The position numbers and the translations under genes are program-made. From Citricoccus sp. CH26A (GTDB taxonomy: Bacteria > Actinomycetota > Actinomycetes > Actinomycetales > Micrococcaceae), in the NCBI RefSeq assembly GCF_000224415.1, contig NZ_AFXQ01000028.1:1-37610 (forward strand): 37,610 nt of DNA. Direction: 5' to 3'. The first letter of the stretch is position 1; every line of letters begins with the position of its first letter. Positions 6,899 to 28,057 of this stretch are shown here, one piece after another. Below the pieces are notes generated by a model. The model had not been told where the DNA came from and did not search any database. It saw nothing but the letters and a program-made list of their open reading frames with translations.

Positions 6899-6905
6899 GG
6901 CGGTC

Positions 6906-10118: not shown

Positions 10119-11542
<1,424 letters not shown>

Positions 11543-11546
<4 letters not shown>

Positions 11547-13378
11547 GATGCCTCTTCCGTGCGTGGGGTGGAATGCGTGGAGGGGGATTCGGTGGTCGGT
11601 GCTCGGGCCGTGGTCCGTGGTGGCGGGGACCGATACGGTCCGGTCGCCTCGAACGCGCAGGCTAGCCGGAGCAGGGCGGTGTCGTCGTAGGCGCGGCCGG
11701 CGAAGGTCAGCCCAAAGGGCATGCCGATGTCCGGGGCGGTGCCCATCGGGACGGTGACGGTGGGGATGCCCAGGTGCCGGGGGACCAGGTTGCCGTTGGC
11801 CACCCAGGTCCCGTTGCGCCAGGCCAGTTCGGCCGAGCGGGGGTTCACGTCGGCGTCGGCGGGCCCGACGTCGGCCAGGGCGGGGAAGACAACCGCATCC
11901 AGTCCCAGCCCGTCCATCCAGTCCTCGAGGTCGGTCCGGCGGGTCTGTTCCAGTCCGGCGAGGCCCTGCGCCAGGTGCGGGATCGACTCCACCGTGGTTC
12001 CGGGCCGGCGGGTCCGGATGATCTCGGGGAAGGCGGCGATGTCGTCGCCGAACCCCTCGTAGCGGTCCGGCAGGGCGCCGGGCGGGTGCGGGAAGATCCG
12101 GGCGCCGTCCACCCGGGCCAGCGTGTCCAGTCCCGGGTCCCCGTTGGCCTGGAGGAAGTCCTCCCAGGCCCACGCGGACAACTCGCTGACCTCCGTGTGC
12201 AGGAACTCGGGGGACACCAGTCCGCGGGTGGCGATGGTCGGGGCCCCGGGGCGGTCGCCCTCGTAGTTCGTGACGACCGGGAAGTCCACCGCCACGACGG
12301 TGGCACCGGCCGCCTCCAGGGCCGCCCGCGCCGCCTCCCAGAGCTCGATCACGGAGGCGCGCGTCTCCACGCGCCGGCCCATCGGGCCCCCGATGCCGGC
12401 GGACCCGCGGTGGTCGGGTCCGGTGCCGGCCTCCGGGTCGGCGTTGACGTACATCCGGGGCACGCCCAGTCGCCTGCCCGTCAGGGCGCCCCGGCCGCCG
12501 TCGGGCCCGGAGGCCGCGGCGAGGGCGGGGTAGGACGGTGGCCGGACGTCACCGGCCCGCGGGAGGGGGATCCACGGCTGAAGGCGCCAGAAGTCCCCGC
12601 GGGTGGTGTGGTCGTCGGCGACGATGACGTCCAGCACCTCGAGCAGGTCCGCCATGGAGCGGGTGTGGGGGACCACCACGTCCATGGTGGGCACCAGCGG
12701 CCAGTTGCCCCGCACGGAGATCATCCCGCGGGAGGGGGTGTAGGCGCACAGGGCGTTGCAGGAGGCGGGCGCCCGGCCGGACGACCAGGTCTCCTCACCC
12801 AGGCCGAAGGCACCGAGGCTCGCGGCCGTGGCCGTCCCGGAGCCGTTCGAGGAACCGGAGGCGAAGGCGCTGGTGAGGTAGTCGGGGTTGTAGGGACTCT
12901 CCGCCCGCCCGTACAGGCCGCGCTGCATGCCCCCGTTGGCCATGGGCGGCATGTTCGTCAACCCCAGCAGCACCGCCCCGGCGTCCCGCAGCCGCTCGAT
13001 GGTGAAGGCGTCCCACCGGGCCACCAGGCCGGCGAACGCCGGTGATCCGGCCGCCACGGTCAGCCCGCGGGCCATGAACGAGTCCTTCGCGGTGTAGGGG
13101 ATGCCGTCCAGCGGTCCCCGCACCGCCCCGGCGGCGCGCCGCTCGTCCGAGGCGCGGGCCTCCTCCAGGGCCCGGGGGTCGTCCACGATCACGGAGTTCA
13201 GCGGGATGCCACCGTCGGGGGCCCGGTCCGCGGCCACCGTGCCGGAGGCGGACTGCGCCGGCCGGTCATGGCGCGCGATGCGCGCCCGGTAGGCGTGCAC
13301 GAGCTCCACGGCGGTGGTGCGACCGGACTCCAGGGCCGCCCGCAGCTCGGCGATGGACCTCTCGGTGACCTCAAGCAT
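11543..13378 (-). CDS. amidase-signature family hydrolase
   Basis: A 611-residue amidase-signature enzyme. The catalytic Lys is in GIPYTAKDS (about residue 97). The Gly/Ser-rich region reads ASGSSNGSGTATAA, and the nucleophile segment is GEETWSSGRAPAS, where the usual GTDTGGSIRxPA is altered although the aligned Ser is kept. The signature spans roughly residues 85-240; a long acidic/hydrophobic C-terminal half follows. It lies between agmatine deiminase and aldehyde dehydrogenase in a coupled operon, so N-carbamoylputrescine or a related amide is a plausible substrate. This is inference; the family is too broad to tell. The ATG at 13376-13378 matches the family start. An ATG two codons upstream is also possible; both overlap the preceding stop. 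Confidence 0.85.
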
Positions 13379-14447
13379 TCCCATCGACCGACCCGCGCGG
13401 GGCGAGCGTGCCCCGGTCCGTGCCCGCGGCCGGCTGCTGCTGGGTGATGCAGTGGATGCCGCCGCCGAAGGCGAAGATGTCCCGGGCGTCCACGAGTTCC
13501 ACGGCGCGTCCCGGGTAGGCCTCGCCGAGGATCCCGGCGGCCCGCGCGTCGGCGGCGGGCTCGCCGAAGGCGCACAGGATGACGGCGCCATTGGCCACGT
13601 AGTGGTTGATGTAGGAGTAGTCGACCCACCCCTCGGCATCGCGCAGCGCTGACGGGGCGGGGACGTCCACCACGCGCAGCGGCCGGCCCTGGGCGTCGAC
13701 CGCACCGCCCAGCTCCTCGCGTAGCCGCCGGGTGACCTGGTGGTCGGGGTGCCCGGGGTCGTCCTGGCGGTGCAGCAGCACGGTGCCGGCCTCGGTGAAG
13801 GACGCGACGATGTCCACGTGCCCGCGGGTGCCGAAGCCGTCGTAGTCCCGGGTCAGCCCGCGGGAGAGCCACACCGCGTGGGTGGTGCCCAGCTGGTCGT
13901 GGATCTCGGCCTCCACCGCGGAGCGGGTCAGCCCCGGGTTGCGGTCGGGGTCCAGTTGCACGGTCTCCGTCAGCAGGACCGTCCCCTGGCCGTCGACGTG
14001 GAACCCGCCGCCCTCGTTGACCAGCCGGGAGTCCCGCGCGGGGGCCTGGGCGTGGTGGGCGACCGCTGCGGCGAGGTGCCGGTCCTGGTCCCACCGGGCC
14101 CAGGGCTGGGCCCCCCAGCCGTTGAAGACCCAGTTGACCGCCGAGAGCGCTCCGGTGGGATCCAGGGTGAACGTCGGGCCGGAGTCGCGCATCCAGGCGT
14201 CGTCGAGGACGGTGGGGAGGATCTCGACGTCGGACCCGAGCAGGTCCCGGGCCGCCGCCTCGTCCTGCGGGTGGGTCACCACGGTGACCGGTTCGTACCG
14301 GGCGATCGTGCGCGCCACGGACGTCCAGGCGGTGCGGGCCCGCCCCAGGCCTTCCGAGCCGGGGGCCCCGAACGTGTCGTTGGGGGTGGGGAAGGACATC
14401 CAGGTGCGCTCGTGGGGCGCCCACTCCGGGGGCATGACCGGGGTCAT
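13371..14447 (-). CDS. aguA: agmatine deiminase (peptidylarginine-deiminase family)
   Basis: A 358-residue agmatine deiminase, converting agmatine to N-carbamoylputrescine and ammonia. Family marks include MPPEWAPHERTWMSFP at the N-terminus, the DAWMRDSGPTF segment, NEGGGFHVDGQGT, and the catalytic Cys333 in FGGGIHCITQQQPA near the C-terminus. Length and order fit AguA well. The ATG shares one base with the permease stop (TGATG), and the amidase begins before this gene ends, so the three are translationally coupled. No nitrilase-type N-carbamoylputrescine amidase (AguB) is present in the window. Confidence 0.92.
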   Translation of the reverse strand: MTPVMPPEWAPHERTWMSFPTPNDTFGAPGSEGLGRARTAWTSVARTIARYEPVTVVTHPQDEAAARDLLGSDVEILPTVLDDAWMRDSGPTFTLDPTGALSAVNWVFNGWGAQPWARWDQDRHLAAAVAHHAQAPARDSRLVNEGGGFHVDGQGTVLLTETVQLDPDRNPGLTRSAVEAEIHDQLGTTHAVWLSRGLTRDYDGFGTRGHVDIVASFTEAGTVLLHRQDDPGHPDHQVTRRLREELGGAVDAQGRPLRVVDVPAPSALRDAEGWVDYSYINHYVANGAVILCAFGEPAADARAAGILGEAYPGRAVELVDARDIFAFGGGIHCITQQQPAAGTDRGTLAPRGSVDGNA

Positions 14448-16003
14448 CAGATGGTCAGCCCTTCCCCGGTGGTGTCCCGCGTGGACTCGGTGGTCTCCAG
14501 GGTCTCCCCGCGGAAGTAGGCCGGGTGGCGCAACCGGGTCCACAGCATGAGCACCACGCCCAGGACGAGCACGCCCATGCCCAGGACGAATACCATGCCC
14601 ACCCCGCCGATCGAGGACCCCGACCCGTAGTCCGGATTGATCGAGTCCACGGCGGTCTGGAAGAACATGACCAGCAGGACCGCGCCGCCGATGAGCGGGA
14701 AGAGGAACTTGAACACCACGTTGCGGGCCGAGGTGAACAGCTCGCGGCGGAAGTACCAGACGCAGGCCAGGGCCGTGATGCCGTAGTAGAAGCAGATCAT
14801 CAGGCCCAGGGCGGTGATGGTGTCCCACAGGGCGTTCTCGCTGAGCAGGCGGGTGATCGTGTAGAAGCCGCCGGCGGCCACGGCCGAGGAGATGGTGGCC
14901 ACGGAGGGGGTGCGGAACCGGGGGCTGATGCGGGAGAACATCGGCGGCAGGGCACGGTAGTACCCCATGGCCAGCAGGGTGCGCGAGGGAGAGATCATCG
15001 TGGACTGCAGGGAGGCGAAGGAGGAGGACATGATCGCGATGGACATCAGCAGGGCGAACGGACCCATCACCGGGCTGGCGAGCACCGCGAACAGCGACTC
15101 CTGGTTGTCCGGGTTCCCGGCGCCCAGGCCCTCGGTGCCGATGCCGGCCCAGGCGATGACGGCCAGCGCGCACAGGGTGTAGATCGCCATGATGATCAGC
15201 ACGGTCAGGGTGGCTGCCCGCCCGGAGGTGCGCTGGGGGTCCTTGGTCTCCTCGTTCATGGTCAGGGTGGTGTCCCAGCCCCAGAACAGGAAGATGGACA
15301 GCGAGATGCCGGCGGCGACGATGGAGAAGTCGTCGAAGCTGAACGGGTTGAACCAGTCGATGCTGATGGGCGTGGGGTCGAAGCCCTCCCCGTTGGCGGC
15401 CTGCACGAGGGCCGCCACGGCGAAGCCGCCCAGCACCAGCAGCTGGAAGCCCACGAGGACGTACTGGATGTGCTGGGTGGACTTCAGCCCCCGGTAGGAG
15501 ATCCAGGCCGCCACCGCGATGAACACCAGGGTGGTGGGGATGTTGATCCACAGGCTGTCCGTCAGCTCGGCCAGCGCCGGGTTGCCGAGGACCTGGGCCA
15601 GCAGCAGGTAGAAGAAGTCCACCGCCACGGCGGCCAGGTTGGACAGCACGATCACCGTGGCCGCGATCAGGCCCCAGCCGCCCATCCAGCCGATCCACGG
15701 ATTGAACGCCTTGGTGGCCCAGGTGAAGGACGTCCCGGAGTCGGGCACCCGCGAGTTGAGTTCGCGGTAGCCGAAGGCGACCAGCAGCATGGGCAGGAAG
15801 CCGAGCAGCAGGATGGCCGGCACGTGGGTGCCGACCACGGAGATGGTGGGTCCGAGCCCGGCGGTCAGGGTGTAGGCCGGGGCGATGCAGCCCACGCCGA
15901 TCACGACGGCGCCGATCACCCCCACCTGGCCCCGGGCCAGTCCCTTGGCGGAGACGGCCCGGTCCTCGGCGGGACGGGGCGGCACGGTGTTGGCAGTGCT
16001 CAT
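14447..16003 (-). CDS. APC-superfamily amino acid/polyamine permease
   Basis: A 518-residue secondary transporter with about 12 hydrophobic segments. The first helix carries the APC-type small-residue stretch (GVIGAVVIGVGCIAPAYTLTAGLG), followed by ELNSRVPDSGTSFTWATKAFNPWIGWMGGW, a typical APC second-helix region. Helix 6 has FLFWGWDTTLTMNEETKDPQRTSGRA, as in amino acid/polyamine importers. Position within the agmatine/putrescine operon suggests agmatine, putrescine or GABA uptake. The ATG at 16001-16003 is 1 nt past the UspA stop with GAAAGTGA upstream; a GTG 4 codons earlier is an alternative. Confidence 0.88.
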   Translation of the reverse strand: MSTANTVPPRPAEDRAVSAKGLARGQVGVIGAVVIGVGCIAPAYTLTAGLGPTISVVGTHVPAILLLGFLPMLLVAFGYRELNSRVPDSGTSFTWATKAFNPWIGWMGGWGLIAATVIVLSNLAAVAVDFFYLLLAQVLGNPALAELTDSLWINIPTTLVFIAVAAWISYRGLKSTQHIQYVLVGFQLLVLGGFAVAALVQAANGEGFDPTPISIDWFNPFSFDDFSIVAAGISLSIFLFWGWDTTLTMNEETKDPQRTSGRAATLTVLIIMAIYTLCALAVIAWAGIGTEGLGAGNPDNQESLFAVLASPVMGPFALLMSIAIMSSSFASLQSTMISPSRTLLAMGYYRALPPMFSRISPRFRTPSVATISSAVAAGGFYTITRLLSENALWDTITALGLMICFYYGITALACVWYFRRELFTSARNVVFKFLFPLIGGAVLLVMFFQTAVDSINPDYGSGSSIGGVGMVFVLGMGVLVLGVVLMLWTRLRHPAYFRGETLETTESTRDTTGEGLTI

Positions 16004-16004: not shown

Positions 16005-16916
16005 TCAGTGGTCACTTTCAGCAGTGGCGGGACCGGTGTGGCCGGCGGGCACGACCACCACCGGGACCGGGACGGTGCGCAGCATCTTCGCGGCGGTGCT
16101 GCCCAGGAACAGCCGGCCGCGGGCGGCCAGCCGGGAGGAGCCCACGATGACGACGTCGTCGGGCTCCCACTCGAGGTGGGCCATGGCATGGTCCACGGTC
16201 GGCCCGGAGGCGACGAGCGTGGTGGCCCGGCCCTGGTCGAGCATCTCGGCGGCCTCGTCGGCCAACCGCCGGTTCGCGTACTGGGTGACGGAGGCCAGGA
16301 CGTCCTCGTCGTCCACGGCGGTGCCCGGGCCGGAGCCCTCCTCGGCCCGGTCCAGCAGCACGAGGGAGACCAGCCGCAACGGGATGGACCGGCGACCGGC
16401 CGCCTGGATGCCCAGGCCGACGACGTCGACGGCGCCCGGCCGCGGGCCGAACATGGCCGTCAACCGGCCCACGGGCCCGCTGTGTTCGTATCCGGCCGGG
16501 GCCAGGGCCACCGGGATCGGCGCGGTGTGCAGGAGGGTGGTGGCGACGGAGCCGAGGCGGTACCGCCGCAGCAGTCCTCCGCTGCGGCCGCCGATGATGA
16601 TCATCGAGCAGCCCAGCTGCTCGGCGGCGGCCAGCAGCCCCTCGGCGTCCGACTCGGCGGTGACCACGTGGCCGGTGGCCGGGACATCGTCCGGGACGGT
16701 GGCCAGCGCCTCGTCGAGCCAGGCGCCCAGTTGTTCCTCGAGGATGTTGCCGTACCCGCCGGCCGGCGGATAGATCCCGGCGTAGGCGCTGTCCAGCGGG
16801 GCGATCATCACCACGTGGAGCCGGGCGTCCTGCTCCCGGGCCAGCGCGATGCCCAGGTTCAGGGCGTCCCGTCCGGTGGAGGTCGCCAGGTAGCCGACCA
16901 GCAGGTGCCGGGTCAT
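16005..16916 (-). CDS. double-domain universal stress protein
   Basis: A 303-residue protein of two tandem UspA folds, about 1-150 and 160-300. Each ends in a nucleotide-binding-like loop: IIIGGRSGGLLRRYRLGSVA in the first, and VIVGSSRLAARGRLFLGSTA in the second, followed by PVPVVVVPA. These resemble the ATP-binding Gly-rich motif of the family, although the spacing in the first copy is one residue short. UspA proteins beside APC permeases are a known arrangement and may tune transport. The ATG overlaps the amine oxidase stop (ATGA), and the stop is 1 nt from the permease start. Confidence 0.88.
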   Translation of the reverse strand: MTRHLLVGYLATSTGRDALNLGIALAREQDARLHVVMIAPLDSAYAGIYPPAGGYGNILEEQLGAWLDEALATVPDDVPATGHVVTAESDAEGLLAAAEQLGCSMIIIGGRSGGLLRRYRLGSVATTLLHTAPIPVALAPAGYEHSGPVGRLTAMFGPRPGAVDVVGLGIQAAGRRSIPLRLVSLVLLDRAEEGSGPGTAVDDEDVLASVTQYANRRLADEAAEMLDQGRATTLVASGPTVDHAMAHLEWEPDDVVIVGSSRLAARGRLFLGSTAAKMLRTVPVPVVVVPAGHTGPATAESDH

Positions 16917-18469
16917 CGGAGCGTCCCCTCGGTGAGGACCGGCCGGCCGGCGTGTGCGAGGATCTGTCGCGCCGCGGCCTCGCCCATGCGCACCGCGCCG
17001 TCCACGTGCTGGTAGCCCTCGGCGGCGATGTCCGAGCAGGCGTAGTGGATGGGCCCGGTGGGACGGTTCTGCAGGTGGCCCCAGCGGTGCAGCCCGCCCA
17101 GGTCATAGCTGGCCGCGTAGGCACCGCGGGTCCACTCCTCGGCCGCCATGTCCGAGAGGTAGAAGGCGATCGGCTCCAGCGCCTGCGGCCCCAGGTAGAC
17201 GGCCAGTGCCTCCAGGACCTGTCGCCGGCGCTCCTCGGCCGGCAGGGCCCACATCCGTTCGGCGTGGACGTCCGAGATGAAGCCCACCAGGGTCCCGTGC
17301 GGGTCCTCCGTCCCGGGCTCGCCGCCGGCGAGGTTGGGGCCGTAGTTCGTGTTGTCGTAGACCTCCTGCACCAGGCGGCCGCCGCCGAAGCCGGTGCCGG
17401 ACAGGCCCTGGGCGCGCCAGAAGGGGGTCTCGTAGACGGCGTGGACCTTGATGACCAGGCCCATCGAGAGGTGCTGGTGGGCGATCTGCTGCTCGCGCGG
17501 CATCGGCGGGGTGAACTGGATGCGTGAGTAGAGGTTCGGCGGGACGGCCAGCACGGCGTTCCGCGCCCGGACGACCACGCGGTCGGAGTGGGCGACCACC
17601 CGGCCGGGGGCACCGTTCTCCGGCACGCCGTCGCGCACGTCCGCCGCGATGCCGTTCAGCGGATCCGCGGTGGCGGGGTCCGGGGTGGCCCACTCCAGCC
17701 CCCGCACGGGGGAGGACAGGTACAGGTCCTCGCCGATCTCCTCGGCCAGTCGCTCGGACACCGTCTGCATCCCGCCCACCACGCGCCGGTCGAGGATGAA
17801 GTCCTCGTCCACCAGGTTCGAGAAGGATCCCGCCGAGGCCGCCATGAGCACGGCCTGCAGCACGGAGAAGGCGTAGGAGGGCTTGGTGAGCATGCCGGAG
17901 GCCACGTAGATCGAGACGTTGTCGATCGCCTCCTGGTCGTCCGAGTGGCTGCTGAGCCAGGTCCGGAAGGAGATGGAGTCGAGCTCGGCCGCGCGGTCCG
18001 CCGCCCACGGCGCACTGGCCCCGATCTCCACGGTGAGCTCGTCCAGCAGGCCGATCAGCCGTTCCATCTCGGTGGCGGTCCGCTCCGAGACCGGCATGCG
18101 GTCACCGGTGTAGGTGTGCCGCGTCCCGTCCGGTGCCACGTAGACGGAGGCACCCTCGCGGTAGCGCGGGAAGGTCTCCAGGCCCAGCTCCTCGACCAGC
18201 TCGATCAGCCGGGTCTGGTCCGGGGAGATCCACTGCCCGCCGATCTCGATGAAGTGCTCCCGGCCGCTGGCGTCCGCCACCCGGCCGTTCCATGTCCGGC
18301 CCCCCACGCGGGGCCGCGCCTCCAGGACGGCGACGCTGTGGCCGGCGTTCCGGAGGGTGCGGGCGGCCATCAGTCCGGCCGGTCCCGCCCCGATGACCAC
18401 CACGTCGCGGTCGATGGTCGGAACGGTGCTCGCGGCGTCCCCGGACGGGGTGGGGAAGGTGATGCTCAT
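16913..18469 (-). CDS. flavin monoamine oxidase, putrescine-oxidase-like
   Basis: A 518-residue FAD amine oxidase. The dinucleotide-binding fold reads DVVVIGAGPAGLMAARTL (Gly27-x-Gly29-xx-Gly32), ending in LEARPRVGGRTW. The C-terminus has the FAD-contacting SDIAAEGYQHVDGAVRMGEAAA. At the position where mammalian monoamine oxidases carry the flavin-linking Cys, this protein has Ala (RGAYAASYD), as in bacterial putrescine oxidases with non-covalent FAD. Context (agmatine deiminase, aldehyde dehydrogenase) supports putrescine to 4-aminobutanal plus hydrogen peroxide. It is the first gene of the six-gene operon, with GGAG 7 nt before the ATG and a divergent TetR gene 139 bp away. Confidence 0.9.
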   Translation of the reverse strand: MSITFPTPSGDAASTVPTIDRDVVVIGAGPAGLMAARTLRNAGHSVAVLEARPRVGGRTWNGRVADASGREHFIEIGGQWISPDQTRLIELVEELGLETFPRYREGASVYVAPDGTRHTYTGDRMPVSERTATEMERLIGLLDELTVEIGASAPWAADRAAELDSISFRTWLSSHSDDQEAIDNVSIYVASGMLTKPSYAFSVLQAVLMAASAGSFSNLVDEDFILDRRVVGGMQTVSERLAEEIGEDLYLSSPVRGLEWATPDPATADPLNGIAADVRDGVPENGAPGRVVAHSDRVVVRARNAVLAVPPNLYSRIQFTPPMPREQQIAHQHLSMGLVIKVHAVYETPFWRAQGLSGTGFGGGRLVQEVYDNTNYGPNLAGGEPGTEDPHGTLVGFISDVHAERMWALPAEERRRQVLEALAVYLGPQALEPIAFYLSDMAAEEWTRGAYAASYDLGGLHRWGHLQNRPTGPIHYACSDIAAEGYQHVDGAVRMGEAAARQILAHAGRPVLTEGTLR

Positions 18470-18608: not shown

Positions 18609-19331
18609 ATGGCAGGACCTCGGCGGCAGGCGGGCCGGCCGGTGAGGCCGGTGCTGAGCCGGGAGCGGATCGCGCAGGCGGCACTGGAGCTGGTGACGCT
18701 GGACGGGGCCGACACGCTGACGATGGCGGCCCTGGCCCGGCACCTCGGGGTGGCCGCGTCCGCGCTGTACAACCACATCGGCGGCAAGGCCGAGCTCACG
18801 GCGCTGCTGCAGGACGCCGTGATGGGACGGGTGGACGTCAGCTCCCTCGAGGCGTTCCTGGACGGTTCCGGGTCACTCGCCGCGGCGCTCGCCGACTGGG
18901 GCCGGTCCTACCGGGAGGCCTTCGCCGCCCACCCCACGTTGATCCCCCTCATCGCGACCCTGCCGATCTCCGGGGCGCCGACCACCCGGGGAATGTACGA
19001 CGTCGTGGCGGCGGCCCTGTGCCACGCGGGGGTGCCCGACGCGCGGGTGGTGCCGGTCATCATCGCCTTCGAGTCCTTCCTGTTCGGATCGGCCATGGAC
19101 GTGCACGCCCCGGCCTCCATCTTCACCTCGCGGCCCGGCGAGTCCGATGCGCCGAGCTTCCAGCGGACCGTGGACTCCTTCACGGCCGCGCTCGCGGCCG
19201 GTGACCAGGGGGCGGGCGCCGCCGGACAGGACACCGTCCCGGGGGCGGCCCAGCGCAATCCCTACGCGGATGCGCCCTTCGAGCTCGGCCTGGACGCCCT
19301 GATCCACGCCACCCTGCGGCTCGTGCCCTGA
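18609..19331 (+). CDS. TetR/AcrR family transcriptional regulator
   Basis: A 240-residue repressor-type regulator. A basic, Pro-rich leader precedes a helix-turn-helix domain at about residues 16-65 (RERIAQAALELVTLDGADTLTMAALARHLGVAASALYNHIGGKAEL). The C-terminal ligand/dimer domain contains the TetR_C-like SYREAFAAHPTLIPLIATLPI. It is divergent from the amine oxidase operon across a 139-bp spacer with palindromes, so it most likely controls that operon and itself. An inducer such as putrescine or agmatine is inference. ATG with AGGGGA upstream. It ends flush against the convergent oxidoreductase gene, with no bases between the two stops. Confidence 0.9.
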   Translation: MAGPRRQAGRPVRPVLSRERIAQAALELVTLDGADTLTMAALARHLGVAASALYNHIGGKAELTALLQDAVMGRVDVSSLEAFLDGSGSLAAALADWGRSYREAFAAHPTLIPLIATLPISGAPTTRGMYDVVAAALCHAGVPDARVVPVIIAFESFLFGSAMDVHAPASIFTSRPGESDAPSFQRTVDSFTAALAAGDQGAGAAGQDTVPGAAQRNPYADAPFELGLDALIHATLRLVP

Positions 19332-20909
19332 TCAGGAGTCGAAGCCCATGCCCAGGGCCTCGGTGAACTTCAGCCACAGCCCCTTGCGTCCGCCCCGCCG
19401 GTCGGCCCGGGCCATCTCCCGCTTGGTGATCTCGATGCCGGCCCAGGCCAGCGGGTCGGGAGGGAAGGGTGCCGGCTTGCGCCGGACCATCTGTAGCCCG
19501 GTGAGTTCGGTGTCCCGGCCCGAGAGCAGGTCCAGCATCACCTGGGCGGCGAACCGGCTGGCACCGACGCCCAGTCCGGTGAACCCGGCCGCACGCGCGG
19601 TCAGCCCGCCGTGGGCGGTGTCGAAGAAGGCGAAGAACCGCGAGCAGGTGTCGATGGCCCCGCCCCACTGGTGGCTGAAGCGCACGCCCTCCAGTTGCGG
19701 GAACGTCGCCAGGGCGTGGGCGGCGAGCCGCCGGAAGGTCTCCGGGCGCTGGTCGTAGGCGCCGGAGACGCGCCGCCCGTAGTGGTAGACCGCGTCGTAG
19801 CCGCCGAACAGGAGCCGGTCCCGGCCCGTGGCGCGGTCGGCGGCCAGCCGGTAGTAGTGGAACCGGGAGTCGGGGTCGTCCAGCCCCTGCCGGCGACGCC
19901 AGCCGAGCGCCGCGGACTGCTCGGGCGTCAGCGGCTCGGTCATCAGCGCGTAGTCGTAGACCGGGACGGTGGACAGTCCCGTGCCGGGCAGCAGGGACCG
20001 GTACGCGTTGGTGGCCAGGGCGACCCGCCGCGCCGTGACCACGGCGCGGGGCGATCCGTCCCCGGGGCCCTGGTGGCCGCCGTCGTACGTCTCCTGCGGA
20101 AGGGACCCGGCGCGGGCGGGAAGGCCCTCGACCTCCCCGCCGACCGTGGCCACCACACGGGCCCCCGCACCGGTGCCGGTGCGGCGCAGTTCCGGGACCG
20201 GTGAGTGCTCGTGGACGCGCACGCCCCGCTCCAGGCACGCACGCTTGAGCCCCCAGGCCAGCCGCGCGGGATCCACCAGCGCGGACTCCCGGTGCCACCA
20301 CAGCCCGGCCCGGTAGAGCGGCGAGGCGACCTCGGCCCGGACCTGCTCCCGGTCGAAGAAGGTCGACTGCGCCGGGTCGGCCTCGTGCTCGCGCCGCAGC
20401 GCGTCCACGTGGTGGTCCTCGACGGCCACGGTCATGCTGCCGTTCCACTCGAAGCCGCAGTCGATCCCGTACCGCTCGAGGGTCTGCCGGATCTCCTCCA
20501 CGTTCTGCTCGCCGAGCTCGTCCAGCCGGTCGACCTCGTCCGGTACGTGCAGCAGCCCGTTGGCGCGTCCGTGGGTCAGCGAGGTCGAGACGAACCCGCC
20601 GTTGCGCCCCGAGGCGGCCCAGCCGCACTCGTGCCCCTCCAGCAGCAGCACGTCCCGGTCCGGGTCCCGCTCCTTGGCCAGCAGCGCGGTCCACAAACCG
20701 GTGAAACCGCCGCCGACCACCAGCAGGTCGGTCGCCGTGTCCCGGCACAGGGCGGGCTCGGCGGGCGGCCGGTCAGAGGAATCCAACCAGTAGGACATGC
20801 CCTTGGCCCCGGCCAGCGCCGAGTCCACGACGTCGGCCGGCACCTCGCGCTCGGCCCTCTCGTAGGCGGTCAGGGGCGAGGCCTCGTCGGGTCGTGGCGG
20901 CTGCGGCAC
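19332..20909 (-). CDS. DAO-family FAD oxidoreductase, PuuB-like
   Basis: A 525-residue FAD-dependent oxidoreductase of the D-amino-acid-oxidase/glycine-oxidase fold. The N-terminal 60 residues include MSYWLDSSDRPPAEPAL, then LLVVGGGFTGLWTALLAKERDP and GWAASGRNGGF, as in gamma-glutamylputrescine oxidase PuuB and relatives. SHQWGGAIDT and GFTGLGVGASRFAAQVMLDLL are near the C-terminus. A cationic-amine substrate is likely from context, but no PuuA ligase is in the window, so a strict Puu pathway is not shown. The GTG at 20907-20909 is chosen because GGAGGTGA lies 5 nt upstream; a GTG three codons earlier would sit inside that site. Last gene of the minus-strand operon, 22 nt after the aminotransferase. 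Confidence 0.85.
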   Translation of the reverse strand: MPQPPRPDEASPLTAYERAEREVPADVVDSALAGAKGMSYWLDSSDRPPAEPALCRDTATDLLVVGGGFTGLWTALLAKERDPDRDVLLLEGHECGWAASGRNGGFVSTSLTHGRANGLLHVPDEVDRLDELGEQNVEEIRQTLERYGIDCGFEWNGSMTVAVEDHHVDALRREHEADPAQSTFFDREQVRAEVASPLYRAGLWWHRESALVDPARLAWGLKRACLERGVRVHEHSPVPELRRTGTGAGARVVATVGGEVEGLPARAGSLPQETYDGGHQGPGDGSPRAVVTARRVALATNAYRSLLPGTGLSTVPVYDYALMTEPLTPEQSAALGWRRRQGLDDPDSRFHYYRLAADRATGRDRLLFGGYDAVYHYGRRVSGAYDQRPETFRRLAAHALATFPQLEGVRFSHQWGGAIDTCSRFFAFFDTAHGGLTARAAGFTGLGVGASRFAAQVMLDLLSGRDTELTGLQMVRRKPAPFPPDPLAWAGIEITKREMARADRRGGRKGLWLKFTEALGMGFDS

Positions 20910-20931
20910 GGGGGTCACCTCCGGTCCCGGG

Positions 20932-22311
20932 TCAACCGGCCGCGTGGCGGTCCGCGACGTCGAGCGCCTGGTCCAGGATGGCCAGTCCCTCGCGGAGCAC
21001 CTCGTCCGGGGTGTTCAGCGGCGGGGCCACGTGGATCCGGTTGTAGTTGGCGAACGGCAGCAGGCCCAGCCGCTTGCACTCGCCGATCAGCTCGTTCATC
21101 TCCGGGCTCGAGCCGCCGTAGGCCGCGAGGGGCTCCTTCGTGGTCCGGTCCCGCACGAGCTCGACGGCCCAGAAGGCACCCAGTCCTCGGACGTCGCCCA
21201 CCGAGGGGTGGCGGTCCCCGATCTCCCGCAGGCGGGGGCCGATGACCTCCCGGCCGACGCGCGCGGCGTTCTCCACCATGCCCTCGTCCTTCATGGCGTT
21301 GATGGTGGCCACGGCGGCGGCACAGGCCAGCGGGTGCCCGGAATAGGTCAGCCCGCCCTGGTAGACGCGCTCGGCGAAGGTCTCGTAGACGGCGTCCGAG
21401 ATGGCCACGCCGCCCAACGGGACGTAGCCCGAGTTGACGCCCTTGGCGAAGGTCATCAGGTCGGGCTCCACGTCCCAGTGGTCGACGGCGAACCACTCAC
21501 CGGTCCGGCCGAAGCCGACCATCACCTCGTCGGCGATGAACAGCACGCCGTACTTCCGGGTCAGTTCCCGGACCCCGGCCATGTACCCCGCTGGCGGCAC
21601 GTAGATGCCGGCGGTGCCGGGGACCGACTCGAGGATCAGGGCCGCGATGTTCTGGGCGCCCTCGAGCTGGATGACCTGTTCGAGGTGCTCCAGGGCGCGC
21701 TCGGTCTCCTGCTGGTCGTCCTCGGCATGGAAGTAGCTGCGGTAGGGGTAGGGCGGCATGAAGCGGACGACGCCGGCCGCGGACCGGTCGGCGTCGAACC
21801 GGCGGGCATCACCCGTGACGTTCACGGCCAGGTCGGTGCCGCCGTGATACGACCGGTAGGCCGAGAGGACCTTGTGCCGGCCGGTGTGCAGCCGCGCCAT
21901 CCGGATGGCGTGCTCCACGGCGTCGGCGCCGCCGTTGGTGAAGAACACGTGGTTCAGGTCCCCCGGGGCCAGGTCGGTGACGAGGCGGGCGGCCTCCGAC
22001 CGGGCGTCGTTGACGTGGGCCGGGGCGATCGTGGCGATCCTCGCGGCCTGGTCCTGGATCGCGGCGATGACCTTCGGGTGGGCGTGGCCGATGTTCGTGT
22101 TGACCATCTGGGAGGAGAAGTCGATGAGCCGGCGTCCCTCGCCGTCCCAGACGTGGGGGCCCTCGGCCTTGAGGATGGTCATCGGGCTGATCTTGCGCTG
22201 CGCGCTCCACGAGTGGAAGACGTGGGCGCGGTCGAGGTCGAACGCCTTGCGGCCCTCGGCGATCAGGTCCTCGGTGATGGCGGGATCGGGGGTCACCGGC
22301 TGGATGGTCAT
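20932..22311 (-). CDS. class-III aminotransferase (polyamine/omega-amino acid type)
   Basis: A 459-residue PLP enzyme of fold type I, subgroup III. The PLP Lys290 is in MTFAKGVNSGYVPLGG. The cofactor-ring Asp is in FIADEVMVGFGRTGEW, and the phosphate-binding region begins FFTNGGADAVEHAIRMAR. Proteins of this kind include putrescine, cadaverine, GABA and beta-alanine:pyruvate aminotransferases; the substrate cannot be read from sequence. Context favours putrescine or GABA. The ATG at 22309-22311 has GAAGGAG upstream; 14 further in-frame codons upstream are ignored. A 10-bp-stem hairpin separates it from the previous aminotransferase gene. Confidence 0.88.
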   Translation of the reverse strand: MTIQPVTPDPAITEDLIAEGRKAFDLDRAHVFHSWSAQRKISPMTILKAEGPHVWDGEGRRLIDFSSQMVNTNIGHAHPKVIAAIQDQAARIATIAPAHVNDARSEAARLVTDLAPGDLNHVFFTNGGADAVEHAIRMARLHTGRHKVLSAYRSYHGGTDLAVNVTGDARRFDADRSAAGVVRFMPPYPYRSYFHAEDDQQETERALEHLEQVIQLEGAQNIAALILESVPGTAGIYVPPAGYMAGVRELTRKYGVLFIADEVMVGFGRTGEWFAVDHWDVEPDLMTFAKGVNSGYVPLGGVAISDAVYETFAERVYQGGLTYSGHPLACAAAVATINAMKDEGMVENAARVGREVIGPRLREIGDRHPSVGDVRGLGAFWAVELVRDRTTKEPLAAYGGSSPEMNELIGECKRLGLLPFANYNRIHVAPPLNTPDEVLREGLAILDQALDVADRHAAG

Positions 22312-22357
22312 CTCGTCTCCTTCGTCGAAGCTGCCTGGTCTCGATCGTGCCATGACT

Positions 22358-22394
22358 GGGCGCGCGGCGGGTGAGGCCGGTCTCCCGCGCGCCC
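22358..22394 (-). terminator. intercistronic hairpin (attenuator or partial terminator)
   Basis: GGGCGCGCGG (22358-22367) and CCGCGCGCCC (22385-22394) form a perfect 10-bp stem. A 17-nt loop contains an inner GAG/CTC pairing. It lies between the two aminotransferase genes with no U run, so it may lower read-through or protect mRNA ends. Confidence 0.45.
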
Positions 22395-22414
22395 TGTCCC
22401 GGCCGCCGGCGCGG

Positions 22415-23809
22415 TCAGATCCGCGCCCAGGCGTCCTGCAGCACCCCGCGCAGGATCTGCTCGATCTCGTCGAACTCGGACTGGCCCAAAGTCAGCGGCG
22501 GGGCGAGCTGGATGACCGGGTCACCGCGGTCGTCCGCGCGGCAGTACAGTCCGGCCTCCCACAGGGCGGGGGACAGGAAGTCACGCAGCAGCCGGTCGGC
22601 TTCCGGGCCCTCGAAGGTGGTCTTGGTGGCCTTGTCCTTGACCAGCTCGATGCCGAAGAAGTACCCGGCCCCGCGCACGTCGCCCACGATCGGCAGGTCC
22701 AGCAGCTGCTCCAGCGTGGCCCGGAAGGAGTCGGAGCAGCCCTGGACCCGCTCGTTCAGCCGCTCGCGTTCCATGATGTCCAGGTTGGCCATGGCGACGG
22801 CGGCGGCGACCGGGTGACCGCCGAAGGTGTAGCCGTGGTAGAAGGTCGAGTCCTTCGCGAAGGGCTCGAAGAGCCGGTCGGAGGCGATCATCGCCCCGAT
22901 GGGGGCGTACCCGGAGGTCATGCCCTTGGCGCAGGTGATGATGTCCGGGGTGTAGCCGAGGTCGGTGCAGGCGAACATCGAACCGATCCGGCCGAAGGCG
23001 CAGATCACCTCGTCGGAGACCAGCAGCACGTCGTACTCGTCGCAGATCTCCCGGACGCGGTCGAAGTACCCCGGCGGGGGCGGGAAGCACCCGCCGGCGT
23101 TCTGCACCGGCTCCAGGAAGACGGCGGCCACGGTCTCGGGCCCCTCGAACTCGATGGCCTCGCGGATGCGTTCGGCGGCCCAGAGCCCGAAGTCCTTCTC
23201 GTTGTCCGCGCAGAACACCGGTGCCCGGTAGAAGTTGGTGTTCGGCACCCTGAACCCGCCGGGGGTCAGGGGCTCGAATTGCTGCTTCAGTTCGGGGATG
23301 CCGGTGATGGACAGAGCGCCCTGCGGCGTGCCGTGGTAGGCGATGGAGCGGGAGATGACCTTGTGCTTCATCGGCCGGCCGGTCTCCTTGAAGTAGTTCT
23401 TGGCCAGCTTCCAGGCGGACTCCACCGCCTCGCCGCCGCCGGTGGTGAAGAACACGCGGTTCAGGTCCCCGGGCGCGTAGGTGGCCAGTCGCTCCGCCAG
23501 GTCGATGGCCGGGGGATGGGCGTAGGACCACAGCGGCATGAACGCCAGCTCCCGGGCCTGCTTCGCCGCCGCCTCCGCCAGCTCCTCGCGACCGTGCCCG
23601 ACCTGCGCCACGAACAGGCCGGCGAGGCCGTCGATGTAGCCCCTGCCGGCGTCGTCATAGATCATGTGGCCCTCGCCGCGCACGATCACCGGGACATCGG
23701 CCCCGCGCTGGATCGGGCCGTGCGCGGTCATGTGCATCCACAGGTGGTCGCGGGCCGCGTCCGTGCGCAGGGCACCGGTGGGTGTGGTGCGTACCGAGTT
23801 GTCGGTCAT
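22415..23809 (-). CDS. class-III aminotransferase (putrescine/omega-amino acid:pyruvate type)
   Basis: A second class-III aminotransferase of 464 residues, clearly different from its neighbour. PLP Lys295 is in IITCAKGMTSGYAPIGA, the ring Asp in LLVSDEVICAFGRIGSMF, and FFTTGGGEAVESAWKLAKNYF is the phosphate-binding start. HLWMHMTAHG near the N-terminus and the SYAHPPAIDLAERLA stretch are typical of omega-amino acid:pyruvate and polyamine aminotransferases. The probable role is amine-group removal from putrescine or a related diamine to pyruvate. The ATG overlaps the Lrp regulator stop (ATGA), so regulator and enzyme are made together. Confidence 0.88.
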   Translation of the reverse strand: MTDNSVRTTPTGALRTDAARDHLWMHMTAHGPIQRGADVPVIVRGEGHMIYDDAGRGYIDGLAGLFVAQVGHGREELAEAAAKQARELAFMPLWSYAHPPAIDLAERLATYAPGDLNRVFFTTGGGEAVESAWKLAKNYFKETGRPMKHKVISRSIAYHGTPQGALSITGIPELKQQFEPLTPGGFRVPNTNFYRAPVFCADNEKDFGLWAAERIREAIEFEGPETVAAVFLEPVQNAGGCFPPPPGYFDRVREICDEYDVLLVSDEVICAFGRIGSMFACTDLGYTPDIITCAKGMTSGYAPIGAMIASDRLFEPFAKDSTFYHGYTFGGHPVAAAVAMANLDIMERERLNERVQGCSDSFRATLEQLLDLPIVGDVRGAGYFFGIELVKDKATKTTFEGPEADRLLRDFLSPALWEAGLYCRADDRGDPVIQLAPPLTLGQSEFDEIEQILRGVLQDAWARI

Positions 23810-24579: not shown

Positions 24580-25872
24580 ATGTCCCCCCGATCCCATCCG
24601 TCCCACCGTCTCAGCCCCCGGCCGGGCGCCACGCCCGGTCCCCGGGATCCCGACGTCGCCGCGCTGGTCCGGCTGGCCCGGTCGGCGTCGACCGGCAGGA
24701 TCAGCCGGCGGTCCCTGCTGGCCGGTGCCGGCGGGCTCGGACTGGCCTCCGTGCTGGCCGCCTGCGGAACCGGTGGCGGGACGACGCCGGCCGGGGACGG
24801 CGAGTCCTCCGCCCAGCTGACCCCCGCCGAGGACCGCTCGGCCGAGGACGGGACGCTGCGCTGGTCCAACTGGACGCTCTACCTGGACTATGACGACGCC
24901 GCGGGCGTCTATCCCACGCTGGAGCGGTTCCAGGCGGAATCCGGCCTGGAGGTGACCTACACCGAGGACATCGACTCCAATGACGGCTTCTTCGGCAAGT
25001 ACCAGAACCAGTTGTCTCGGGGGCAGGACATCGGCGCGGACCTGATCACGCTGACGGACTGGATGGCGGCGCGGTTGATCCGCCTGGGCCAGGTGCAGGA
25101 ACTGGACGCGGGGAACATCCCCCACCTGGCCAACCTGCTGCCCAACTACCGGGAGGTCGAATGGGATCCGGGACGCGTGCACTCCGCGACCTGGCAGGGC
25201 GGGTTCACGGGACTGGCCTGGAACAAGGAGGAGGTCCCCGGGGGCCTGCGTGCGCTGGACGACCTGTGGGACCCGGCGCTGAAGGGGCGCGTGGTCGTGC
25301 TGGACGAGATGCTCGACACCATGGGCCTGCTGATGATGGCCGACGGGGTGGACATCACGGGGGACTGGGGCGACACCGAGTTCGACAACGCCCTGGAGGT
25401 CCTGCAGAAGCACATCGCCAGCGGCCAGATCCGCCAGGTCAAGGGCAATGCCTACAAGGAGGACCTGATCTCCGGTGACGCCCTCGCCGTGATCGGCTGG
25501 TCCGGGGACATCACCCAACTGAACGTCGAGAACGGCGACCGCTGGGGGTTCACCCTCCCGGAGGCCGGCGGAACCATGTGGGCGGACAACCTCATGGTCC
25601 CCATGGGATCCTCGCACAAGGCCAACGCGGAGAAGCTCATCGACTTCTACTACGACCCGGCGGTGGCGGCCGAGGTCGCCGCCTACGTCAACTTCGTCTG
25701 CCCGGTGGAGGGGGCGCGGGAGGAGATGGAGAAGATCGATCCCCAGCTGGCCCAGGACCCGATGATCTTCCCGACGGACGAGTACCTGGCCAACGCCCAG
25801 ATCATCCGGGCCCTCACCCCCGAGGAGGAGACCCGGTACAACGAGTCCTTCCAGCGGGCGATCGGCAACTGA
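24580..25872 (+). CDS. potD: spermidine/putrescine ABC transporter substrate-binding lipoprotein
   Basis: A 430-residue periplasmic-type binding protein of the PotD/PotF family. A long polar N-region leads to a twin-arginine signal (RISRRSLLAG, Arg43-Arg44) and a lipobox LAAC with Cys62, so a Tat-exported lipoprotein is likely. The mature part has LRWSNWTLYLDYDD, the family-like TYTEDIDSNDGFFGKYQ and an NLMVPMGSSHKANAEKLIDFYYDP region near the C-terminus. It would capture polyamines for the permease that follows. The ATG at 24580 has GAGGAG 5 nt upstream; 44 in-frame codons further upstream look non-coding. First gene of a four-gene operon. Confidence 0.92.
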   Translation: MSPRSHPSHRLSPRPGATPGPRDPDVAALVRLARSASTGRISRRSLLAGAGGLGLASVLAACGTGGGTTPAGDGESSAQLTPAEDRSAEDGTLRWSNWTLYLDYDDAAGVYPTLERFQAESGLEVTYTEDIDSNDGFFGKYQNQLSRGQDIGADLITLTDWMAARLIRLGQVQELDAGNIPHLANLLPNYREVEWDPGRVHSATWQGGFTGLAWNKEEVPGGLRALDDLWDPALKGRVVVLDEMLDTMGLLMMADGVDITGDWGDTEFDNALEVLQKHIASGQIRQVKGNAYKEDLISGDALAVIGWSGDITQLNVENGDRWGFTLPEAGGTMWADNLMVPMGSSHKANAEKLIDFYYDPAVAAEVAAYVNFVCPVEGAREEMEKIDPQLAQDPMIFPTDEYLANAQIIRALTPEEETRYNESFQRAIGN

Positions 25873-25876
25873 GCCC

Positions 25877-27103
25877 ATGGGACAGCTGCCGACGACGACA
25901 TCGCCCGAGAGCATCCCGGGGACGGACCTGGCCGCACCCGGGCATCAGCCCGCCGGGGACCGGCCGGCAGCAGGGGGCGCAGAACTGGTCCTGCACCGGG
26001 TGCGCAAGCAATTCGCCGACTTCGCGGCCGTCCAGGCCACGGACCTGACGGTCCCGGCCGGTGAGTTCTTCGCGCTGCTGGGCCCCTCCGGTTGCGGCAA
26101 GACCACCACCCTGCGCATGGTGGCCGGCCTGGAGACGCCCACGGCCGGCAGCATCCGGATCGGTGGACGCGACGTGACCTCCCTGCCGTCCTACAAGCGG
26201 CCGGTCAACACGGTCTTCCAGTCCTACGCTCTCTTCCCCCACATGACCGTGAAGGAGAACGTGGCCTTCGGGCTGCGCCGCCGGCGGGTGCGGGACTGGA
26301 GGGGCCGGACGGAGGAGTTCCTGCGACTGGTGGAACTGCACCACCTGGCCGACCGCCGTCCCGCGCAGCTCTCCGGCGGGCAGCAGCAACGCGTGGCACT
26401 GGCCCGGGGCCTGGTCAACCAGCCGGAGATCCTGCTGCTGGACGAACCCCTGGGCGCCCTGGACATGAAGCTGCGGCGGCAGATGCAGTCCGAACTCAAG
26501 CGGATCCAGGCCGAGGTGGGGCTGACGTTCATCCACGTCACCCACGACCAGGAGGAGGCCATGTCCATGGCCGACCGGATGGCCGTGATGAATAAGGGCC
26601 GAATCGAGCAGATCGGCAGGCCGGAGGACCTCTACCACCTGCCACGCACCGCCTTCGTGGCCAACTTCCTCGGCCGGTCGAACCTGATGGCCGGGACAGT
26701 CACCCGGGGCGGTGGCGGCACGGACCCCCTGCTCGAGGTGAACGCGTCCGGCCACCGGCTCGCGGTGCACCGGGACCGGGCGGTCTCCACCACCGGCGAG
26801 GTCCTGGTGGGCATCCGGCCGGAGAAGATCCACATGCGTCCGGCGGGGGCGCGCCTGGACGGTGCCACCGCGGACGGGGGAGTGAACCGGGTGGCCGGGA
26901 CCGTCACGGACGTGGCCTTCACCGGGGTCTCCACCGAGTACCGCGTCGAGGTGCCGGGACTGGGCGAGCTCGGCGTCTTCGCCCAGAACCGCGGCGAGGA
27001 CCTGATGCGGCCCGGTGACGCCGTCGGGCTCGCCTGGGACGCGGCCCACGCCTTCGGCCTGGACGGGCGGCAGGACGCGGCGGCCGGGGACGGCGCGGTA
27101 TGA
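25877..27103 (+). CDS. potA: polyamine ABC transporter ATP-binding protein
   Basis: A 408-residue ATPase of the spermidine/putrescine importer. Walker A is GPSGCGKTT at about 69-77, the Q loop is in VFQSYALFPHMTVKENVAFGL, the signature LSGGQQQRVALARGL is near 164, Walker B is ILLLDEPLGALD and the switch His is in IHVTHDQEEAMSMADR. The C-terminal TOBE domain (about 270-395) contains VGIRPEKIHM. The first 35 residues are a variable leader. The start is 4 nt after the binding-protein stop and has no strong ribosome site of its own, so translation is probably coupled. The stop overlaps the next gene (ATGA). Confidence 0.93.
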   Translation: MGQLPTTTSPESIPGTDLAAPGHQPAGDRPAAGGAELVLHRVRKQFADFAAVQATDLTVPAGEFFALLGPSGCGKTTTLRMVAGLETPTAGSIRIGGRDVTSLPSYKRPVNTVFQSYALFPHMTVKENVAFGLRRRRVRDWRGRTEEFLRLVELHHLADRRPAQLSGGQQQRVALARGLVNQPEILLLDEPLGALDMKLRRQMQSELKRIQAEVGLTFIHVTHDQEEAMSMADRMAVMNKGRIEQIGRPEDLYHLPRTAFVANFLGRSNLMAGTVTRGGGGTDPLLEVNASGHRLAVHRDRAVSTTGEVLVGIRPEKIHMRPAGARLDGATADGGVNRVAGTVTDVAFTGVSTEYRVEVPGLGELGVFAQNRGEDLMRPGDAVGLAWDAAHAFGLDGRQDAAAGDGAV

Positions 27104-28038
27104 CCTCCCGGGTGGCGGGCCGATCGGGTCGGCAGGCCGGGTTCGAACGGGCGGCGGCGCTCGCGGACGGGACCGCGCAGGCCCGCGGCCGGGCCGGGTA
27201 CGGACTGGTCGGCCCCGGGCTGGTCTACCTGCTGGTGTTCTTCGTGCTGCCGGTCTTCACGCTGCTGGCCACCTCGCTGTACGTGAAGCCGCCCGGGGCC
27301 GAGGTGGGCCAGTTCGTCCCCGCCCTGGAGTTCGGGAACTACGCCGTCGTGCTGGGCGGGTACTGGCCCGAGCTGTTGCGTTCCTTCGGCTTCGCCCTGC
27401 TGGCCACGGTCCTGTGCCTGGTGATCGGCTACCCGATGGCCTACCTGATCGCCGTGCGGCTCCGGGGGCGGGCCTTCGTGCAGGGGCTGCTGCTGGTGTT
27501 GCTGATCGCACCGTTCTTCACCTCCTTCGTGCTGAGGACCCAGGCCTGGAAGCAGATCCTGGCGGACGAGGGGTTCCTGGTCCAGGCCCTGAAGACGCTG
27601 CACCTGATGCCGCAGGGCGCCTCCCTGGCCGCCACGTCGGTGGCGGTGGTGGCGGGCCTGACCTACAACTTCCTGCCGTTCATGGTGCTGCCGATCTATG
27701 CGAACCTCCAGGCCCTGGACCACCGGCTGCTGGAGGCGGGCCGGGACCTGTACGGCAGCGACCTCACGGTCTTCCGGACGATCACCCTGCCGATCTCCGT
27801 GCCCGGAGTGCTGGCCGGGACCCTGTTGACCTTCATCCCGGCCTCGGGGGACTTCGTCAATGCGGCCATCCTGGGCAACAACCGGAACACGACCATGATC
27901 GGGCAGGTCATCGACTCCAAGTTCATGCGCGTGCTCGACTACCCCGGTGCGGCCGCGCTGTCCTTCATCCTCATGGTGACGATCCTCGTGCTCGTGACCC
28001 TCTACGTGCGCAGGTTCGGCACCAGGGACCTGGTGTGA
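27100..28038 (+). CDS. potB: polyamine ABC transporter permease 1
   Basis: A 312-residue permease with about six membrane segments. The first is GLVYLLVFFVLPVFTLLATSLY after a roughly 35-residue basic cytoplasmic N-terminus. The ATPase-contacting EAA loop is LLEAGRDLYGSDLTVFRTITLPISVPG, followed by PASGDFVNAAILG as in PotB proteins. It pairs with the next gene to form the heterodimeric channel. The ATG overlaps the ATPase stop by 4 nt. Confidence 0.92.
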   Translation: MTSRVAGRSGRQAGFERAAALADGTAQARGRAGYGLVGPGLVYLLVFFVLPVFTLLATSLYVKPPGAEVGQFVPALEFGNYAVVLGGYWPELLRSFGFALLATVLCLVIGYPMAYLIAVRLRGRAFVQGLLLVLLIAPFFTSFVLRTQAWKQILADEGFLVQALKTLHLMPQGASLAATSVAVVAGLTYNFLPFMVLPIYANLQALDHRLLEAGRDLYGSDLTVFRTITLPISVPGVLAGTLLTFIPASGDFVNAAILGNNRNTTMIGQVIDSKFMRVLDYPGAAALSFILMVTILVLVTLYVRRFGTRDLV

Positions 28039-28057
28039 ACGGAAGGCAGGGACCGAC

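What the first reader, a model, noticed from the sequence alone, without database searches (positions are those of the whole stretch)
11543..13378. Amidase-signature enzyme as a candidate replacement for AguB
After agmatine deiminase the product N-carbamoylputrescine must be hydrolysed, normally by the nitrilase-fold AguB. None is here; instead a 611-residue amidase-signature protein with an altered nucleophile segment (TWSSGR in place of TGGSIR) is coupled to aguA. This would be a non-orthologous replacement.
Basis: inference. Interest (0 to 1): 0.7.

Follow-up and report, generated by a model that had tools for sequence, protein, structure and literature searches.

The report
AguY amidase in agmatine-catabolism operon

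Summary
Window 11543-13378 (-) encodes a 611-residue amidase-signature protein that overlaps the stop of an agmatine-deiminase gene by 8 nt, and no AguB ortholog was found in the genome. The interpretation also holds, but it is not new. Li et al. 2025 (PMC12283126) purified this kind of enzyme from Shewanella oneidensis and the actinomycete Microterricola gilva, named it AguY, and showed it hydrolyses N-carbamoylputrescine at least as well as AguB. The window protein belongs to that family: 980 bits with NF005127 (cut-off 575) and a full-length match to Tse8, which the paper places among AguY proteins. The 'altered nucleophile' TWSSGR is the family signature; the nucleophile serine is kept.

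What I add is a survey of the bacterium's own family (120 genomes). Of 62 aguA copies resembling the window's (300 bits or more), 35 lie next to AguY, 21 next to a divergent AguB-like nitrilase and none next to both; the other 6 are in genomes with AguY elsewhere. The operon puo-usp-permease-aguA-aguY-aldh, and no hit above cut-off for two arginine-decarboxylase families, suggest agmatine catabolism. This protein was not assayed. The genome also has an agmatinase.

The parts
11543..13378 (-). aguY: amidase-signature N-carbamoylputrescine amidohydrolase (611 aa); triad K98, S176, S200; TWSSGR = residues 197-202
13371..14447 (-). aguA: agmatine deiminase (PAD_porph, 358 aa), 8-nt overlap with aguY
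10119..11546 (-). aldehyde dehydrogenase (475 aa), starts 4 nt inside aguY (ATGA); probably 4-aminobutyraldehyde or succinate-semialdehyde dehydrogenase (inferred; below both curated cut-offs)
14447..16003 (-). APC-type amino acid/amine permease; its stop overlaps the aguA start by 1 nt
16005..16916 (-). universal stress protein, in the same run of genes
16913..18469 (-). putrescine oxidase (flavin amine oxidase, 518 aa); best solved match 2yg3, 587 bits; 4-nt overlap with the usp gene
18651..19331 (+). TetR-type regulator, divergent from the operon (start uncertain; 18609 also possible)
19332..20918 (-). FAD-dependent oxidoreductase (DAO family); role in amine oxidation inferred
20932..23809 (-). 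two class-III aminotransferases (20932-22311, 22415-23809); role in amine or GABA degradation inferred
24580..28987 (+). polyamine-type ABC transporter genes (binding protein, ATPase, two permeases); only the ATPase passes a polyamine subfamily cut-off (TIGR01187); the second permease was scanned with Pfam only

Best explanation
The gene encodes AguY. [quoted passage not shown] AguY hydrolyses the ureido group with a Lys-cisSer-Ser triad (K98-S176-S200) through a carbamoyl-enzyme intermediate, giving putrescine, CO2 and ammonia. The operon's putrescine oxidase and aldehyde dehydrogenase then take putrescine to 4-aminobutyrate. Shown here: family membership, conserved triad positions, no AguB ortholog found, translational overlap with aguA, and the partner pattern across relatives. 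Shown in print for relatives: the N-carbamoylputrescine amidohydrolase activity. Inferred: the activity of this protein, the acyl-enzyme step, and a catabolic role.
For: NF005127: 980.1 bits against a cut-off of 575. Full-length 819-bit match to Tse8, which PMC12283126 places inside the AguY tree at 69% identity to the assayed M. gilva AguY. 55 of 80 have an aguA homolog directly upstream on the same strand within 400 nt and 1 of 80 has it downstream; the genomes of the other 24 all carry a PAD_porph gene outside the fetched stretch, against 5 of 14 control genomes. K98, S176 and S200 are invariant in 81 of 81 and 42 of 42 sequences. In 120 genomes of the family, of 62 aguA copies scoring 300 bits or more with the window's aguA, 35 adjoin AguY, 21 adjoin an AguB-like nitrilase, none adjoin both, and the other 6 lie in genomes with AguY elsewhere; Fisher p = 1.6e-11 on copies, not corrected for relatedness. 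The window's aguA falls in a clade of 19 aguA genes (SH-aLRT 100) that all adjoin AguY. A putrescine oxidase lies in the same operon. No arginine decarboxylase of the SpeA or OKR_DC_1 families passed its cut-off.
Against: No assay of this protein. 24 of the 80 closest relatives kept are not linked to aguA; 13 of those 24 are Pseudomonas, the genus of the published effector Tse8. Two family genomes carry a divergent homolog (53% identity) without an aguA of 284 bits or more (G049, G066). Six further PAD_porph copies (284 bits or more with Pfam, under 220 with the window's aguA) adjoin neither partner though they keep the catalytic Cys; three of them lie in two genomes (G077, G026) in which neither AguY nor the nitrilase was found. 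The genome has an agmatinase, so AguY need not be the only route to putrescine. AguA scores below the TIGR03380 cut-off. 3 of 120 genomes carry both AguY and a partner-type nitrilase, though not at the same aguA.
Confidence: 0.93

Rival explanations
1. The amidase hydrolyses a different amide or ureido compound in amine catabolism, and its link to aguA reflects a broader nitrogen-scavenging operon.
For: The amidase-signature family is chemically broad; weaker matches include allophanate hydrolase, biuret hydrolase and peptide amidase.
Against: Purified relatives, including an actinobacterial one, are efficient N-carbamoylputrescine amidohydrolases. AguY and the AguB-like nitrilase are alternatives beside aguA.
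Confidence: 0.04
2. N-carbamoylputrescine is hydrolysed by one of the two CN-hydrolases elsewhere in the genome, and the amidase is accessory.
For: Two CN-hydrolase genes match; both score weakly with the AguB model (121.7 and 81.4 bits).
Against: They score only 52-55 bits with the profile of the aguA-linked nitrilases, whereas partner-type members score 489-642 with a like profile. One fits deaminated-glutathione amidase better than AguB; the other lies next to a flavin amine oxidase. Neither is on the aguA contig.
Confidence: 0.02
3. It is a Tse8-like protein whose main role is to bind the GatCAB transamidosome rather than metabolism.
For: Full-length match to Tse8.
Against: It lies inside a six-gene amine-catabolism run with the catalytic triad positions kept, and 55 of its 80 closest kept relatives have aguA directly upstream. 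The paper derives Tse8 from AguY, not the reverse. A secretion system in this genome was not searched for.
Confidence: 0.01

Closest known systems
AguY, noncanonical N-carbamoylputrescine amidohydrolase (Li et al. 2025, PMC12283126)
   Same: Amidase-family protein encoded beside aguA, reported in Actinomycetota and Proteobacteria; same Tse8-related family
   Different: This protein is longer (611 aa against 584 for M. gilva and 568 for S. oneidensis) and unassayed; here the operon also holds putrescine oxidase, a usp gene, a permease and an aldehyde dehydrogenase, and the paper's main text has no occurrence of 'putrescine oxidase'
Tse8 (6te4, 6yhv)
   Same: 819-bit full-length match with the same ETWSSGR segment
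   Different: Tse8 is reported as a secreted antibacterial effector beside an immunity gene and not beside aguA
AguB (TIGR03381), nitrilase-fold N-carbamoylputrescine amidase
   Same: Same reaction and same pathway position; AguB-like nitrilases adjoin 21 aguA copies in the same bacterial family
   Different: Unrelated fold; no ortholog found in this genome
GatA and other amidase-signature enzymes
   Same: Lys-cisSer-Ser triad positions align
   Different: TGGSIR in the genome's GatA, TWSSGR here; GatA is a separate gene in this genome (L087, 580 bits with TIGR00132)

Membership tests
AguY / NF005127 | Scores over the family model's curated cut-off | tested here: met
   980.1 bits against 575. 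That NF005127 corresponds to AguY is my inference from the Tse8 match; NCBIfam only calls it 'amidase'
AguY / NF005127 | Encoded next to aguA | tested here: met
   8-nt overlap
AguY / NF005127 | Not homologous to nitrilase-fold AguB; genome lacks an AguB ortholog | tested here: met
   Pfam Amidase only
AguY / NF005127 | Hydrolyses N-carbamoylputrescine to putrescine | not testable with these tools
   Shown for S. oneidensis and M. gilva enzymes in PMC12283126
Amidase signature (PF01425) | Pfam match and Lys-cisSer-Ser triad | tested here: met
   162.9 bits against 27; K98, S176, S200 align with GatA (which residues are catalytic is recalled)
AguB (TIGR03381) | Match to the AguB model | tested here: not met
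   P0001 has no CN-hydrolase match in Pfam and TIGR03381 is not among its 25 listed NCBIfam matches (26 in all)
Tse8 effector | Secreted by a type VI system and paired with immunity gene Tsi8 | not tested
   Neighbours are amine-catabolism genes; no search for a secretion system was made
Agmatine deiminase AguA (P0002) | Over the TIGR03380 cut-off | tested here: not met
   258.1 against 381.8 bits; yet the closest solved structures are agmatine deiminases and the GHxD and GGGIHC segments are kept

The most novel reading that the evidence does not exclude
In this bacterial family (Micrococcaceae by matching contigs) the second step of the agmatine deiminase route is held by one of two interchangeable cassettes. 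One is aguA-aguY; the other is a divergent nitrilase gene directly upstream of aguA. The five of these nitrilases that were scanned score 185-198 bits with the AguB model, far under its 410-bit cut-off, so they may form an uncharacterised N-carbamoylputrescine amidohydrolase clade. All 62 window-like aguA copies in the sample have one or the other in the genome, never both beside the same copy, and one genome (G085) carries both cassettes at separate loci.
Probability: 0.5. Interest if true: 0.4.

Novelty: new member of a known kind. Interest (0 to 1): 0.3.

Why it matters
It supports the 2025 AguY proposal in a bacterial family that the paper's main text does not mention under the names searched. 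It also shows that annotation by the AguB model alone misses both kinds of second step: AguY, because the fold differs, and the local nitrilases, because those scanned fall under the curated cut-off. Genes of NF005127 that NCBIfam calls only 'amidase' and that lie beside aguA can be renamed with reasonable confidence.

Tried and rejected
Considered and rejected. (1) That the nucleophile is lost: the alignment shows S200 kept and TWSSGR as the family signature. (2) That absence of TIGR03381 hits above the cut-off proves absence of AguB in relatives: one search found 0 of 120 above the cut-off, but my E-value limit there (1e-60) also hid the aguA-linked nitrilases (1e-54 to 1e-58), so I aligned 20 of the 21 and repeated the survey. 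(3) That aguA without AguY points to a third unknown enzyme: 22 genomes had aguA copies of 284 bits or more but no AguY (25 copies); 20 of these 25 copies have the nitrilase directly upstream and the other 5 are divergent. (4) A structure prediction was not run, because a solved full-length homolog exists.

Rows dropped or set apart. In one search the window's own aguA was seen three times (window, L085, L090) and is counted once, giving 68 copies. Six copies scoring under 220 bits with the window's aguA were left out of the 62 (L106, L109, L110, L117, L164, L168); they score 284 bits or more with Pfam and keep the Cys of GGGI(H/Q)C, so they may be working deiminases of another subfamily. Three of them are in genomes with a partner at another aguA (G097, G114, G087) and three are in genomes where neither partner was found (G077 twice, G026). 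Fisher on all 68 gives p = 1.9e-9. PAD_porph copies under 284 bits were not examined for partners; only the window genus's paralog among them was looked at. The AguY-like genes of four genomes of one genus (G050, G074, G094, G111) are only 56-57% identical to the window's and lie about 1.7 kb from aguA or unlinked. Of 588 relatives found only the best 80 were kept by the tool; in 3 of them (Aeromonas) the linked aguA homolog is only 34% identical.

Errors on the way. One search failed to load the loci and used a wrong start for the aldehyde dehydrogenase; one search repeats it. A paper search for 'N-carbamoylputrescine' with 'amidase signature' found nothing; the AguY paper came up through 'Tse8', and 'AguY' with 'carbamoylputrescine' finds that one paper only.

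Full report
OBSERVATION. The ORF at 11543-13378 (-) is real: 611 aa, ATG start. It begins inside aguA (8-nt overlap ATGCTTGA) and its stop overlaps the next gene by ATGA. Upstream on the same strand are a permease (stop overlaps aguA by 1 nt), a universal stress protein gene and a flavin amine oxidase gene (4-nt overlap with usp); the permease ATG lies 1 nt after the usp stop. The six genes therefore form one tightly packed run: puo-usp-permease-aguA-aguY-aldh. That it is one transcript is inferred.

WHAT THE PROTEINS ARE. The amidase scores 980.1 bits with NF005127 (cut-off 575) and is Pfam Amidase. Its best solved relative is Tse8 (6te4, 819 bits, residues 1-591), which carries the same ETWSSGR segment. 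The deiminase is PAD_porph (348 bits); its nearest solved relatives are named agmatine deiminases and the GHxD and GGGIHC segments are kept, although it lies under the TIGR03380 cut-off (258.1 against 381.8 bits). The amine oxidase matches solved putrescine oxidases (2yg3, 587 bits; 2YG3 is from Rhodococcus erythropolis). The aldehyde dehydrogenase is nearest to an NADP-dependent succinic semialdehyde dehydrogenase model (478 bits, under its cut-off of 730), so its substrate is inferred. Further along are a DAO-family oxidoreductase, two class-III aminotransferases, an Lrp-type regulator and a polyamine-type ABC transporter whose ATPase passes TIGR01187 (359.7 against 355.6) while the binding protein and the first permease stay under their equivalog cut-offs. 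The whole 10-29 kb stretch looks like a polyamine-use island (inference).

THE NUCLEOPHILE. Aligned with the genome's own GatA and another amidase, K98, S176 and S200 fall on the known triad positions (which residues are catalytic is recalled). All three are invariant in 81 of 81 sequences (window plus 80 loci) and in 42 of 42 AguY ORFs from the fetched family loci. W198 is present in 81 of 81 and in 36 of 42. TWSSGR is therefore the family signature, with the nucleophile in place.

IS IT IN PRINT? Yes. PMC12283126 (Li, Baniasadi, Phillips, Michael, Biochem J 2025; I read parts 1 to 3 of 5, that is abstract, introduction, results, discussion, conclusions and part of the methods) names AguY, finds it beside aguA in Actinomycetota and in alpha-, beta- and gamma-Proteobacteria, and gives kcat/Km of 179,400 (S. 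oneidensis) and 641,800 (M. gilva) against 82,500 per M per s for P. aeruginosa AguB. It places Tse8 inside the AguY tree and describes AguB/AguY alternation among Shewanella species. Its main text has no occurrence of Kocuria, Arthrobacter, 'Micrococc', 'putrescine oxidase', 'nucleophile' or 'catalytic triad'. An older paper on Arthrobacter sp. Rue61a (PMC3534580, passages only) reports growth on agmatine, and its table calls the pathway 'incomplete, via putrescine'. Other papers were seen as listings only.

THE GENOME. It is 3.47 Mb and 99.87% complete. Two genes match PF00795. One is better described as a deaminated-glutathione amidase; the other lies next to a flavin amine oxidase gene. 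With a profile of 16 aguA-linked nitrilases they score only 52-55 bits. No other close AguY copy exists; the next matches are an amidase and GatA at 79 and 61 bits. There is an agmatinase (L088, 216.4 bits against 174.3) and a formimidoylglutamase. No arginine decarboxylase of the SpeA or OKR_DC_1 families passed its cut-off (46.8 and 14.2 bits at best); the pyruvoyl types and putrescine transcarbamylase were not searched. A catabolic role is therefore favoured, not proven.

NEIGHBOUR SURVEY, WIDE. In 80 loci (best of 588 relatives) an aguA homolog lies in 56 of 80; in 55 it is directly upstream on the same strand within 400 nt. The other 24 (13 Pseudomonas, 6 Brevibacterium, 2 Streptomyces, and one each of Humibacter, Flexivirga and Mycolicibacterium) lack it in the fetched stretch, but 24 of 24 of their genomes have a PAD_porph gene, against 5 of 14 control genomes. 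Putrescine oxidase and the permease precede aguA-aguY in 4 of 80 (L005, L027, L035, L053).

NEIGHBOUR SURVEY, OWN FAMILY. Of 120 genomes (the window's included), 42 carry AguY at E 1e-100 or better and 80 a PAD_porph gene; none has an AguB over the curated cut-off. I fetched the surroundings of all 68 aguA copies of at least 284 bits with PF04371 (67, plus the window). AguY adjoins 35, an AguB-like nitrilase directly upstream adjoins 21, none has both, 12 have neither (the window's three views counted once). Of the 12, six lie in genomes with AguY elsewhere (G047, G050, G071, G019, G111, G091). The other six score under 220 bits with the window's aguA; three are in genomes that have a partner at another aguA (G097, G114, G087) and three are in G077 and G026, where neither AguY nor the nitrilase was found. 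These six keep the catalytic Cys, so they are the exceptions if they turn out to be agmatine deiminases. Fisher p is 1.9e-9 on all 68 and 1.6e-11 on the 62, without correction for relatedness. On an aguA tree of the 62 the AguY and nitrilase labels need 2 changes, and the window's aguA sits in a clade of 19 (SH-aLRT 100), all AguY-linked. The pattern is thus a few cassette-level exchanges rather than many independent ones, which weakens the p-values but not the exclusivity. Five of the nitrilases were scanned, and all five score best with the AguB model (185-198 bits) but under its cut-off of 410. With the profile of 20 of them, 23 of 120 genomes have a match of 489 bits or more; three of these (G085, G032, G117) also have AguY, and the window genome has no match at E 1e-30 or better.

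VERDICT. The window gene is a new, unassayed member of AguY in what looks like an agmatine-to-GABA operon. What goes beyond the paper is modest: the putrescine-oxidase operon and the alternation with a divergent nitrilase in one actinobacterial family.

Noticed in passing
L091 (G000:C48:1571-2566), L173-L178: A second agmatine-deiminase-like gene that lacks the catalytic Cys (the IHC of the active site reads IRH, VRH or IRQ) is found in all 7 sampled genomes of the genus (window genome plus 6); the active-site His is also changed in 4 of 7. A LysR-type regulator adjoins it in the window genome and a homolog of it was found in 4 of the 6 other fetched stretches. Probably a conserved pseudoenzyme (the names of the active-site residues and of the LysR type are recalled).
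   Followed up: partly
L002 (G000:C49, about 6.3-8.6 kb): Flavin amine oxidase gene followed by a nitrilase-family gene; resembles an amino-acid 2-monooxygenase plus amidase pair (resemblance recalled, not tested).
   Followed up: no
L098-L105, L107, L108, L111-L116, L160-L163, L165 (nitrilases upstream of aguA): 21 divergent AguB-like nitrilases; the five scanned fall under the TIGR03381 curated cut-off and would be missed by model-based annotation.
   Followed up: partly
L135 and L165 (genome G085): One genome carries both cassettes, aguA-aguY and nitrilase-aguA, at separate loci.
   Followed up: partly
L106, L109, L110, L117, L164, L168: Six divergent PAD_porph genes with the catalytic Cys kept and neither AguY nor nitrilase adjoining; in two of their genomes (G077, G026) neither partner was found anywhere, so substrate and next step are unknown.
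   Followed up: partly
window 5813-9547: Divergent gene pair that reads like Ku and LigD of bacterial end joining (recognised by eye, not scanned).
   Followed up: no
window 4741-5811, 2951-4222, 33947-37479: Topoisomerase IB, an Nramp-type transporter, and a DyP-type peroxidase (EfeB-like, under that model's cut-off) followed by a CopD-like membrane protein (under cut-off).
   Followed up: no
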